From contig NZ_CP110389.1 of NCBI RefSeq assembly GCF_026015985.1, forward strand, positions 1,116,001 through 1,180,000: DNA of 64,000 bases. Reading direction: 5' to 3'. The notes under the pieces were generated by a model. That model was not told where the DNA came from and did no database searches. It saw nothing but the letters and a program-made list of their open reading frames with translations. Of the stretch, positions 3,652 to 47,772 are shown piece after piece. How positions within the stretch are numbered: the stretch's first letter is position 1; each line of letters begins with the position of its first letter. This DNA is from Rhodopseudomonas sp. P2A-2r (lineage in GTDB: Bacteria; Pseudomonadota; Alphaproteobacteria; Rhizobiales; Xanthobacteraceae). A program made the translations under genes and the position numbers.

Positions 3652-5147
3652 ATGAGTTCTGAACTTGCACCCGAAGATCGGGCGAAAACCGGTATTTGGG
3701 GTCTGGATAATATCCTGTCCGGTGGTTTTACGCGCGGTCACCTGTTTCTCGTGGAAGGCGCGCCGGGCACCGGCAAGACCACTGTTGCTCTGCAGTTTCT
3801 CCTGGAGGGCGCCCGTACCGGGGAAAATGCCTCTATATCACCCTGTCCGAGACCGATCCTGAGCTGCGCGACGGTGCGGCTTCACATGGCTGGACCCTCG
3901 GCGAAGGCATCGAGGTCTTCGAACTTCTGCCTCCCGAAAGCCTGCTGGATTCCGAGCAGCAGCAGAGCCTGCTGTATTCCTCGGACCTTGAGCTCGGGGA
4001 AACTACCAAGCAGATCTTCGAGGCGGTCGAACGCGTCAAGCCGAGCCGGGTCGTGCTCGACAGCCTGTCTGAAATCAGGCTGCTGGCGCAGAGCTCGCTG
4101 CGCTATCGCCGGCAGATCCTCTCCATCAAGCACTATTTCGCACGGTTCAACACCACGGTCATGCTGCTGGACGATCTCACCGCCGACGTGGCCGACAAGA
4201 CCGTGCATAGCGTTGCCCATGGCGTTTTGCGCCTGGAGGAACTGGCGCCGTCCTATGGCGCCGAGCGCCGCCGCGCCCGCGTGATCAAGTATCGTGGCGT
4301 GAAATTCCGCGGCGGCTACCACGACGTCACCATTTCCACCGGCGGGTTGAACATCTTCCCAAGGTTGGTGGCCTCGGAATTCCGCAACAATCTGGCCCGC
4401 ACAACGAAGTCATCCGGGATCGCCGAATTCGACCAGTTGCTCGGCGGCGGAGTCGAAACCGGATCGAGCACGCTGGTGCTGGGACCGGCCGGCACCGGCA
4501 AATCAATCGCCGCGATCGTCAACGTCGTGGCCGCGGTGAAGCGCGGAGAAAAGGCCGCGATGTTCGTGCTCGATGAGGAGCTTGGTCTGCTGTTCGATCG
4601 CATGAAAGGTCTTGGCATCGATCTCGCCGAGATGCAGCGAAGCGGAAAGCTGTTCGTGGAGCAGGTCGATGCGGCCGAACTGTCGCCCGGCGAATTCGCG
4701 CATCGCGTTCGCAAGCAGATCGACGACCATGATATCAAGACCGTGGTGATCGACAGTCTCAACGGTTATCAGGCTTCGATGCCTGAGGAGAACTCGCTGA
4801 TCCTGCATATGCACGAGCTGCTGCAGTATCTGAATCGCCGTGGCGCTGCGACGTTCATGACGGTTGCGCAGCACGGTCTGGTGGGTGACATGAAGGCGCC
4901 GATCGACGTCACCTATCTGGCCGACACCGTGATCCTGCTGCGCTATTTCGAAGCGACAGGCAGCGTGCGGCGGGCGATTTCGGTGATCAAGAAGCGTACC
5001 GGCAATCACGAGACGACGATCCGCGAATACCGGATCGACCGCCGCGGCCTGACCATCGGGGCCCCGCTCAGCGAATTCCAGGGCGTGTTGCGCGGCGTCC
5101 CGATTTATGGCGGCGTCAGCCCGTTGCTGGAGGAGCAGGCCTCGTGA
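3652..5147 (+). pseudogene. kaiC: KaiC-like double-domain ATPase, interrupted by a one-base frameshift
   Basis: The product reads as a KaiC-family tandem RecA-like ATPase of about 498 residues once one base is restored. Domain 1 has Walker A EGAPGTGKTT (about residue 36); domain 2 has LGPAGTGKS (about residue 280). At the A-run 3824-3827 the frame breaks. Adding one A turns the text into GE-KCLYITLSETDPELRDGA, the normal family sequence, which continues in the frame ending at 5147. As read, the first frame stops at 4284 and the second has a possible GTG start at 4053. Compared from memory with Synechococcus KaiC, the S431-T432 pair aligns with Thr-Tyr (VTYLADTVILL). There is no kaiA or kaiB nearby. 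Its stop overlaps the kinase start by four bases (GTGA). The break is most likely a sequencing deletion. Confidence 0.85.
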
Positions 5148-7197
5148 AGCCGGGCCTGTCCTCCGAACGCGCGGTCATTCTGGCCCCTACCGGCCGCGAC
5201 GCTGCGGTGGCGGAGGCGCTGATCCGCGAGGCTGGTTTTTACGCGCAGGCCTGCGCGGATTTTACAGCTCTGGTGCAGGAGATCGAGGGCGGTGCAGGAC
5301 TGGCGGTGATCGCCGACGAGGCGATCAAGACCGCCGATCTGCGCCGGCTGGTGACCTGGCTCCACGACCAGCCGTCATGGTCGGATTTCCCCATCGTATT
5401 GCTGACCCGGCAGGGCGGCGGCCCCGAACGCAACCCCGATGCGGCAAGGCTCGGACAGTTGCTCGGCAACGTCACCTTCATCGAGCGCCCGTTTCACCCC
5501 ACCACTTTGGTGAGCATCGTTGGCTCGGCGGTGCGCGGGCGACGCCGGCAATACCAGACGCGCGCCATTCTCGAAGATCTCACCGAAAGCGAAGAGCTGC
5601 TGCAGACGGCGCTCAACGCCGGCCGGCTGGGCGCGCTGGAGCTGCATCTTCCGACGCTGGAACTCGAAGTTTCGGATGCCTGCAAGTCGTTCTTCGGACG
5701 AAAGGCGGGGCAGCCCTTCACTTTTGAGGACCTGCAGGCATCGATATATCCGGACGATCGCGAGCGCCGCCAGCAGGCTCTCGACCTGACCCTTGCCAAT
5801 GGCAGCGACTACAATGTCGAGTATCGCAATATATGGCCGGACGGCACCGTGCATTGGGTGGAGACCCGCGCGCGGACCATTCGCGGCCCCGACGGCAAGG
5901 TCAAATCGCTGGTCGGCGTGTCCCTCGATATCACCGCACGAAAGACCGTCGACATCGAGCGGGAAACGCTGCTCGACCAGCTCGCAGCCGAACGCACGGC
6001 GCTGGCCGAACTCACCGCCACGCTGGAACAGCGCGTGGAGGAGCGCACGGCCGATCTGATGAAGGAAGTCGCGGCCCGCGAAAAGGCCCAGGAGCAGCTG
6101 CGCCAGGCGCAGAAGATGGAGACCATCGGCCAGCTCACCGGCGGCGTCGCGCATGACTTCAACAATCTGCTGATGGCCGTCATGGGCAATCTGGACTTGC
6201 TGCGCAAGCGCATCCCCGACGACCCGCGCATGCACCGGCTGATCGACGGCGCGATGCAGGGGCCGAGCGCGGCGCGTCGCTGACCCAGCGGCTGCTGGCA
6301 TTTGCGCGGCAGCAGGATCTCAAGGTGGTACCGGTCGATCTGGGCGCGCTGATCCGTGGCATGATCGATCTGCTTGAGCGTTCGCTCGGTCCCCGTGTTG
6401 CGCTGAATATCGATATCCCCGAGGGCCTGCCGCCGGCACGGATCGATGCCAACCAGCTGGAGCTTGCGATCCTCAATCTGGCAATCAACGCGCGCGACGC
6501 CATGCAGGATGGCGGGGCGATCGACATCAAGGTGTCCCGGCACGCGGTCAACAACGACCCCGCTTTGACACCCGGCGACTATCTGAAGGTGTCGGTGATC
6601 GACAACGGCAGCGGCATGTCGCCGGAGACGCTGAAAAAGGCGATTGAGCCGTTTTTCTCGACCAAGCCGCTGGGCAAGGGCACCGGCCTCGGCCTGTCGA
6701 TGGTGCATGGCCTCGCGGTGCAACTCGGCGGCACCCTCGAACTCTGCAGCGTGGTGGGACGCGGTACGACGGCGACCCTGGTGTTGCCCGTCACCACCAA
6801 AGCCCCGGCATCCACCGGCGCAGGTCAGGTCACGCGCAACGCCGCGCGCTCGGCGGTGATCCTGTTCGTCGATGATGATCCGCTGATCGCCATGTCCACC
6901 ACGGAGATGCTGGAAGATCTGGGTCACCGGGTCATCGGCGTCAATTCCGGCCGCCATGCGCTGGATATTTTACGCAGCGAACAACCGCTCGATCTGATGA
7001 TGACCGATCACGTGATGCCGGGAATGACCGGCATCGAACTTGCCGCTGCCTCGCGGGAGGTGCGGCCGTCGCTGCCGATCCTGCTTGCGACCGGCTATGC
7101 GGAACTGCCTGAGGGCACGCAGCTCGATCTGCCGCGGCTGGCGAAGCCCTATCATCAGGACCAGTTGCGGGAGCGGCTCGATCAACTGCTGGGCTGA
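5144..7197 (+). pseudogene. KaiC-coupled hybrid histidine kinase, interrupted by a one-base frameshift
   Basis: A soluble hybrid sensor kinase of about 684 residues when repaired. In order: an N-terminal receiver-like domain without an obvious full acidic pocket (about 1-130), a PAS/PAC domain (about 150-265), a coiled coil, an H-box GGVAHDFNNLL (about 332), an ATPase domain with NLAINARDAM, DNGSGM and GKGTGLGLSMV, and a C-terminal receiver with VDDDPL and TDHVMPGM. The frame breaks at the G-run 6259-6262. Adding one G gives AMQGAERGASLTQRLLAFA and joins the two halves. As read, the first part stops at 6283 and the second resumes from about 6325. It is translationally coupled to the KaiC-like gene, so the pair very likely forms one signalling unit. 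The input signal is unknown. Confidence 0.85.
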
Positions 7198-7305
7198 CCC
7201 GAAGGGAACCCGCGATGCCGCGATTAATGGTTCGTTAACCAGGGCTGGATCAAGAATGGGCGGTTGAGAATCGCGCGGCGCGCAATTGGACACAGGGCGG
7301 TTGCC

Positions 7306-46413: not shown

Positions 46414-46516
46414 CTGCCACAGCTTTGCCGCAAGCCGCCCACAAGCCATTGAGCAGCCTTGCGTGACTCGTTCATCCGCTTTGTGGCATGGTGAGACGGG
46501 GCCGGGTGGGGAACAA

Positions 46517-47772
46517 ATGGCGCTGACACCGCGCACGCCGCGTACACGGCGGCCGCGCACCCAGTTGAAGGCGAAAAAGCGCGTCGCGAAGACGGCTGCC
46601 GTGAAGCCGCGCGCCCGGCGCAGTGTGGCGCGGCCGAAGGCCGGTATGGTGGAAGTAGCGCTTGCCGCCTTTGCCCATGAGGTCCGCACGCCGCTCACCG
46701 GCATCCTTGCCGTCAGCGATCTGCTCGCAACCTCCGACCTCGACGAGCGCGAGCGGCGCTGGGTCGATACCATCAAGGCCGGTGCCGAACATCTTGCCGG
46801 CTTGGCGACCCTTTTCGTCGATGCCGCGCGCAGCGGAAATTCAAAACTGCAAGTGCGTCAGGATTTTTCGATCTGCGGGCGCTGGCCCGCAATGCCGGCG
46901 ATTCGCTGGCGGGCCGGGCCGCCGCCAAGGGCCTGCAATCACGTGTCGATATTTCCGCGACATTGCCGGTGTTCGTGATCGGCGATCCGGTCCGGCTGCG
47001 CGCGGCGTTGGAAAACCTGATCGATAATGCGGTGAAGTTCACCGATCGCGGTAACGTCGAGATGAAAGTGACGTCGCTGCGCGCCGGCCGCGGCGCGGTC
47101 GGCATTGCATTCCGGGTGTCCGACAGCGGCATCGGGCTGTCGCTGGCGGAGATCAAGCGGCTGTTCCGGCCGTTCTCGCAGGCCAACGTCACCATCGCCT
47201 CGCGCTTCGGCGGGGCCGGTCTCGGCCTGTCGTCGGTGAAGCAACTGGCGCGTGCCATGGGCGGCGACATCGTGGTGGCGCCGCGCCGCGGCGGCGGCAC
47301 GGTCTTCACGCTGACGGTGACGCTCGCGCGGGCGAAGGGGCCGATCGCCATCATGTCCGGGCTCGCCGACGATGCTTCGGCGGAGCCGCACCAGTCGCTG
47401 CGGGTGCTCAGCGTCGAGGACAATCCGTTCGGCCGCGTGGTGCTCAATGCGATCCTGACCGAACTCGGTCACCAGGCCGAATTCATCGGCCGAGGCGAGG
47501 CCGCCGCCGAACGTGTGGCGCAGGGCGGTTTCGACGCGGTGCTGATGGATATGGTGTTACCCGGCATCAACGGGATCGAGGCGATCCAGCGGATTCGCGC
47601 GCTGCATGCGCCGTTCGGTCAGATCGCCATCATCGGTGTGTCCGGCCGCGGCGACGACGAGGCGGCATCGCGCACCGCCGGCGCCGATGCGTTCCTGGTC
47701 AAACCGGTGTCTCCACGGGCGCTAGCGACTGCGCTGCTTGAAGCGAGACGCCATGCGGTAGCCGCGACTTGA
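46517..47772 (+). pseudogene. Hybrid histidine kinase, interrupted by a one-base frameshift
   Basis: A soluble hybrid kinase. The basic N-terminal tail (about 50 residues) is followed by an H-box AFAHEVRTPLTGILAVSDLL, an ATPase domain (NLIDNAVKFTDRG, VSDSGIGLS, GGAGLGLSSVKQLARAMG) and a C-terminal receiver (SVEDNPFGR, VLMDMVLPGINGIEAIQ). The frame breaks at the T-run 46864-46868. One extra T gives RQDFFDLRALARNAGDSLAG and joins the two parts into about 418 residues. It has no sensor domain, so a partner must supply the signal. The end overlaps the opposing yihY gene by 74 bp. Confidence 0.85.

What the first reader, a model, noticed from the sequence alone, without database searches (positions are those of the whole stretch)
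3824..46868. Eight genes share a one-base loss at short homopolymers: systematic undercalling, not decay
Breaks at 3824-3827 (A4), 6259-6262 (G4), 12828-12832 (G5), 19849-19855 (C3G4), 32557-32560 (C4), 40959-40963 (G5), 43717-43721 (G5) and 46864-46868 (T5) are each repaired by a single added base, and each repair restores conserved family sequence with no other damage. Unrelated genes, both strands, one cause: this is the signature of homopolymer-length error in sequencing. Automatic annotation would call these eight genes pseudogenes, split ORFs or a false fusion.
Basis: partly seen in the sequence, partly recalled or inferred. Interest (0 to 1): 0.75.

Follow-up and report, generated by a model that had tools for sequence, protein, structure and literature searches.

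The report
Assembly errors posing as broken genes
Eight genes of a soil bacterium look broken by one missing base each, but the same genome shows such breaks even in ribosomal-protein genes that no cell can lose, so they are almost certainly sequencing errors, of which the genome shows two kinds.

Summary
All eight runs are as printed, and eight unrelated genes change frame by one base there. At the seven sites that align at DNA level, this genome lacks exactly one base against nearly all relatives; site 4 rests on protein frames alone. The window lies in a one-contig 6.74-Mb Tardiphaga genome.

Sequencing error is strongly supported. In 423 kb aligned to congener G016, 23 frame breaks are specific to this genome, against 5 in reverse. 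They hit ribosomal proteins L6 and L18, FtsA, an FtsI-type transpeptidase and RseP. CcrM is split too. No living cell could carry L6 and L18 both broken.

"Homopolymer undercalling" is only part of the cause. Losses mostly sit at runs of 4-5. But all eight one-base gains, none in the window, read GAGATC, and the congener has GANTC, the CcrM methylation site, at six of them. That points to methylation-linked nanopore basecalling errors, a known class.

Which base was lost is open at most sites. General scarcity of long G/C runs is not significant against G016 (OR 0.62, p=0.083). No reads were seen; the platform is inferred.

The parts
3643..5147 (+). Site 1: KaiC-type ATPase gene in two frames (3643-4284 and 3711-5147), junction 3825-3828 at the A4 run
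   Evidence: Pfam KaiC in both frames; congener frames of 509-533 aa match both sides; one base fewer than 26 of 26 loci
4889..7197 (+). Site 2: PAS / HATPase / response-regulator kinase in two frames (4889-6283 and 6157-7197), junction 6259-6262 at the G4 run
   Evidence: one base fewer than 25 of 25 loci
12551..13386 (-). Site 3: Crp-type regulator, cNMP domain (12739-13386) and HTH (12551-13003) in different frames, junction about 12820-12832 at the G5 run
   Evidence: one base fewer than 11 of 11 loci
19267..20216 (-). Site 4: unnamed gene in two frames (19836-20216 and 19267-20058), junction within 19842-19875
   Evidence: no Pfam match; a 282-aa frame of congener G010 matches both sides; no DNA-level alignment
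31149..33596 (+). Site 5: MBOAT gene whose frame runs into the next gene, junction about 32553-32580 near the C4 run
   Evidence: Pfam MBOAT; two separate open frames in congener G003; one base fewer than 3 of 3 loci, all of G003
40444..41456 (+). Site 6: alpha/beta hydrolase in two frames (40444-41130 and 40746-41456), junction about 40941-40974 at the G5 run
   Evidence: weak Pfam hydrolase matches; one base fewer than 3 of 3 loci, one of them a paralogue of this genome
43340..44770 (-). Site 7: DUF2855 gene; the frame leaves the family near residue 351 at the G5 run 43717-43721 and runs on for about 125 residues
   Evidence: Pfam DUF2855 to residue 350; match ends at residue 348-358 in 70 of 80 loci; the run-on tail has no convincing match in 12 loci tried; one base fewer than 69 of 69 loci
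46193..47772 (+). Site 8: HisKA / HATPase / response-regulator kinase in two frames (46193-46978 and 46681-47772), junction 46864-46867 at the T5 run
   Evidence: one base fewer than 61 of 98 loci and in 11 congeners with phase change

Best explanation
The eight breaks are consensus errors of an assembly made from long, error-prone reads, most likely Oxford Nanopore without short-read polishing. Two error modes act in this genome. First, one base is lost, mostly at runs of four or five; all eight window sites fit this. Second, one base is gained at GANTC, the CcrM methylation site, which is then read as GAGATC. Shown: the breaks, their excess over a congener, their presence in genes a cell cannot lose, and the two sequence contexts. 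Inferred: the platform, that GANTC is methylated here, and that the methyl group disturbs the basecall.
For: 23 own-specific against 5 congener-specific frame breaks in the same 423 kb (23 and 4 after a two-frame protein check). Broken here: L6 (pieces match 1-73 and 71-175 of the model), L18 (5-47 and 44-116), FtsA, an FtsI-type transpeptidase, RseP, UvrA twice, CcrM. Of ten losses with a junction under 30 bases, nine have a run of 4 or more within five bases. All eight gains lie within five bases of GAGATC; the congener has GAGTC or GAATC in its place in six.
Against: No reads or platform record were seen. Scarcity of G/C runs of 6 or more, expected of general undercalling, is not significant against G016 (OR 0.62, p=0.083), though it is against 13 other congeners (OR 0.41, p=0.00056) and 80 more distant loci (OR 0.25). 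A/T runs are not scarce. GANTC is not depleted nor GAGATC enriched overall, so only about one GANTC site in a hundred is affected. Three of the 23 events are doubtful, and one clean loss has no run of 4. RpoB, NuoD, FtsZ and RecA are whole.
Confidence: 0.93

Rival explanations
1. Pure homopolymer undercalling: one cause, no methylation-linked mode.
For: All eight window sites and nine of ten sharply placed losses elsewhere and in the window lie at runs of 4 or more.
Against: All eight one-base gains found lie at GAGATC, which 1.9% of random 10-base windows overlap; undercalling gives no gains.
Confidence: 0.05
2. Real gene decay or a mutator lineage: the runs truly lost a base in the organism.
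For: Slippage in runs is a common natural mutation, and the window genes are plausibly dispensable (regulators, KaiC, DUF2855).
Against: L6, L18 and FtsA are broken in the same genome, which a living cell could not bear (established knowledge). Slippage does not explain gains at GAGATC.
Confidence: 0.015
3. Programmed frameshifting or transcript slippage restores the products in the cell.
For: Runs are a natural place for slippage.
Against: The genes are unrelated, aligned relatives lack the shift at sites 1, 2, 3 and 7 in every locus aligned, and the mechanism would be needed for L6 and L18 too.
Confidence: 0.005

Closest known systems
Gene-fragmenting indels in long-read assemblies (Kastor paper, PMC12007338; passages seen)
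   Same: Few indels, mostly at homopolymers, turn many intact genes into false frameshifted pseudogenes.
   Different: Passages seen name no methylation ('methylat' does not occur in the main text) and give other insertion contexts.
Methylation-motif errors of nanopore assemblies at GANTC (agrobacteria, PMC12710330; Brucella, PMC12392509; passages seen)
   Same: Errors gather at or near the CcrM motif GANTC in alphaproteobacteria.
   Different: The first speaks of SNP errors near the motifs, the second of two potential cases; here the signs are one-base gains that read GAGATC.
Dcm-motif errors from basecallers trained without that methylation (PMC6591954; passages seen)
   Same: A basecaller errs at a methylated motif according to what its training set held.
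   Different: 5mC at CCAGG/CCTGG, not an adenine-methyltransferase motif.

Membership tests
Systematic long-read (nanopore-type) consensus error | One-base indels concentrated at homopolymers | tested here: met
   nine of ten sharply placed losses have a run of 4 or more within five bases; 8.0% of random 10-base windows overlap one, though the segments tested were 13-35 bases
Systematic long-read (nanopore-type) consensus error | Indispensable genes broken as well | tested here: met
   L6, L18, FtsA, FtsI-type transpeptidase, RseP
Systematic long-read (nanopore-type) consensus error | Long runs generally shortened | tested here: inconclusive
   G/C runs of 6+ to runs of 5: own 27:487, G016 34:379 (p=0.083), 13 congeners 43:321 (p=0.00056), 80 loci 163:741 (p=7e-13); A/T runs unaffected
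Systematic long-read (nanopore-type) consensus error | Reads of another technology disagree with the assembly | not testable with these tools
   no reads held
Methylation-linked basecalling error at GANTC | Errors located at the motif | tested here: met
   8 of 8 gains at GAGATC, 6 of 8 opposite GAGTC/GAATC; all aligned pairs: own GAGATC against congener GANTC 10 of 888, reverse 3 of 989
Methylation-linked basecalling error at GANTC | A CcrM-type methyltransferase in the genome | tested here: met
   N6_N4_Mtase and RAMA domains in one locus, in different frames at a C5 run; the name CcrM rests on this architecture, no CcrM of a relative was compared
Methylation-linked basecalling error at GANTC | GANTC is methylated in this strain | not testable with these tools
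   no modification data

The most novel reading that the evidence does not exclude
The gain errors read out the methylome: a basecaller whose training saw methyladenine mainly inside Dam sites (GATC) renders methylated GANTC as GAGATC. 'GAGATC where relatives have GANTC' would then be a fingerprint by which unpolished alphaproteobacterial assemblies, and the false pseudogenes in them, can be spotted without reads.
Probability: 0.4. Interest if true: 0.4.

Novelty: already known. Interest (0 to 1): 0.3.

Why it matters
The genome passes as near-complete (99.83%) and is one contig, yet shows 23 frame breaks of its own in 423 aligned kb. Spread evenly that is some 370 in 6.74 Mb, an extrapolation. 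Pseudogene counts, gene-loss claims and split or fused proteins taken from it, or from assemblies like it, would be wrong. A look at ribosomal-protein genes and at the GAGATC word reveals this without reads.

Tried and rejected
Depletion of GANTC and enrichment of GAGATC over the first 464 kb: not seen. From 1.83 GANTC per kb, about 770 are expected in the aligned 423 kb against 8 detected gains, so roughly one in a hundred is affected at least. That all eight gains have C before GAGATC means little, since 682 of 1091 GAGATC in the held sequence do.

A ninth break in the window near 48610, where a GAGATC lies: rejected as a gene end. Apparent breaks near 44.7-46.4, 14.8, 28.1 and 49.7-51.5 kb: I read them as opposite-strand shadows or gene boundaries. 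The phase scan over the 48.1 kb of the window that aligns to any of 272 other loci recovered only sites 1, 2, 3 and 8 of the eight, so further breaks may have been missed.

Of the 23 own-specific events I regard three as doubtful though they pass the automatic rule: L248:8549 (hairpin-like, wide junction), L294:2907 and L309:10296 (no clean two-frame split). The first run-length test on 464 kb (OR 0.29, 0.21, 0.13) looked stronger than the one on 864 kb, which stands. For site 7, ten of 80 loci have matches running past residue 358; the tail alone finds nothing convincing in those ten or in two others (best E 0.014).

Full report
What the window is. It lies at 1,116,001-1,180,000 of a single contig of 6,737,367 bases. 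The genus is Tardiphaga: congener contigs G009:C75 (117,364 bases), G012:C22 (1,120,506), G007:C512 (6,857) and G008:C1 (48,735) have the exact lengths of named records, three of them labelled Tardiphaga (T. robiniae LMG 26467 among them) and one Bradyrhizobiaceae bacterium PARB1.

The observation. The eight runs are as printed. Where Pfam names the gene, its parts fall in two frames or its frame runs on; site 4 has no Pfam match. Tblastn of relatives' open frames against the window places the junctions at 3825-3828, 6259-6262, about 12820-12832, within 19842-19875, about 32553-32580, about 40941-40974, 43717-43721 and 46864-46867. At DNA level the window lacks one base, net, against 26 of 26, 25 of 25, 11 of 11, 3 of 3, 3 of 3 and 69 of 69 loci at sites 1, 2, 3, 5, 6 and 7, and against 61 of 98 at site 8, where more distant kinases are among the loci; nothing aligned at site 4. 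Loci overlap: the three at site 5 are one genome (G003), and one of the three at site 6 is a paralogue in this same genome. In one search the shift goes with a change of substitution phase in 12, 12 and 11 congeners at sites 1, 2 and 8. At site 5 an MBOAT frame runs into the next gene, a separate open frame in G003; in G010 the two lie in one frame with a stop between. At site 7 the DUF2855 match ends near residue 351 and the frame runs on; in 70 of the 80 loci kept the match also ends at 348-358, and the tail alone finds nothing convincing in the ten longer ones.

Error or decay. I compared 864 kb of the genome, window included, with congener G016 (stretches); 423 kb align. An indel counts as own-broken if third-position substitutions change phase in this genome and keep phase in the congener, with an open frame there. 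There are 23 own-broken events and 5 congener-broken ones; 23 and 4 pass a two-frame protein check, though I regard three of the 23 as doubtful. Two neighbouring ribosomal-protein genes are hit: L6, whose two frames match positions 1-73 and 71-175 of a 175-position model, by a gain; and L18, whose two frames match 5-47 and 44-116 of 116 positions, by a loss; the next gene, S5, is whole. FtsA, an FtsI-type transpeptidase and RseP are split likewise, and UvrA twice. RpoB, NuoD, FtsZ and RecA are whole, as sparse errors would leave many genes. A cell with L6 and L18 both split is not viable by established knowledge, so these breaks are in the sequence record, not in the organism. That the window's eight are of the same origin is inference from their like context and frequency.

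Two kinds of error. Of the 23 events 13 are net losses of one base, 8 gains of one, 2 net two; of the last, the one in uvrA amounts in frame to a loss and lies at a C5 run, the other is doubtful. Among the ten losses with a junction under 30 bases, nine have a run of four or more within five bases; the exception is L281. For comparison 8.0% of random 10-base windows overlap such a run; the segments tested were 13-35 bases, so chance is somewhat higher than that. All eight gains lie within five bases of the word GAGATC, which 1.9% of random 10-base windows overlap. In six of the eight the congener has GAGTC or GAATC in its place. None of the four checked congener-broken events lies at that word. 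GANTC is the recognition site of CcrM (recalled, and so named in the passages). The genome has a CcrM-like gene, itself split: methylase domain and RAMA domain lie in different frames at a C5 run. Over all aligned pairs, own GAGATC meets congener GANTC with a one-base gap 10 times in 888, the reverse 3 in 989.

Limits. At site 8 the top-scoring relatives (G011, G007) carry a longer T run, the other relatives shown an interrupted one; at site 2 the 14 of 25 relatives shown have another base inside the run. The missing base falls where relatives vary, so they cannot tell which base was lost, and I do not claim that every window site was a longer homopolymer. G/C runs of six or more are scarcer than in 13 congeners (OR 0.41) and in 80 more distant loci (OR 0.25), but not significantly against G016 (OR 0.62, p=0.083), and A/T runs are not scarce. 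No reads and no platform record were available. No gain of the GAGATC kind was found in the window.

Literature. Homopolymer and methylation-linked errors of nanopore assemblies are known. GANTC is named among error motifs in agrobacteria (PMC12710330, passages), and two potential GANTC-linked errors are told for Brucella (PMC12392509, passages). Gene-fragmenting indels are the subject of PMC12007338 (passages); training-dependent errors at a methylated motif of PMC6591954 (passages). I did not meet the change of GANTC into GAGATC in the listings of three searches; in the listing one paper holds both words, and its passages use GAGATC in another sense (PMC12679398). That a Dam-trained model pulls the call towards GATC is my inference.

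Verdict. The finding is right that these are not decayed genes, and its run context holds in the window. It lacked the proof from indispensable genes and missed the second error class. As biology the breaks are not real features; as an artefact the kind is known.

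Noticed in passing
L248:6271-6749 (genome 2,996,271-2,996,749): Neighbouring L6 and L18 genes are each split, one by a gain at GAGATC, one by a loss at a G4 run.
   Followed up: yes
L325:1378-2507 (genome about 6,079,500-6,080,700): The CcrM-like methyltransferase gene is itself split at a C5 run, RAMA domain in another frame.
   Followed up: partly
L205:6360 (G016), opposite window 46190: A congener-specific frame break in G016 at a C6 run, in a gene open in the window; G016 may have some errors of its own.
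   Followed up: no
L326: A second N6/N4 methyltransferase lies close to a single-stranded-DNA-binding-like protein, possibly a mobile element; not searched further.
   Followed up: no
window 13986-14070: tRNA-Leu (CAA), minus strand, at the edge of a stretch that aligns with many congeners.
   Followed up: no
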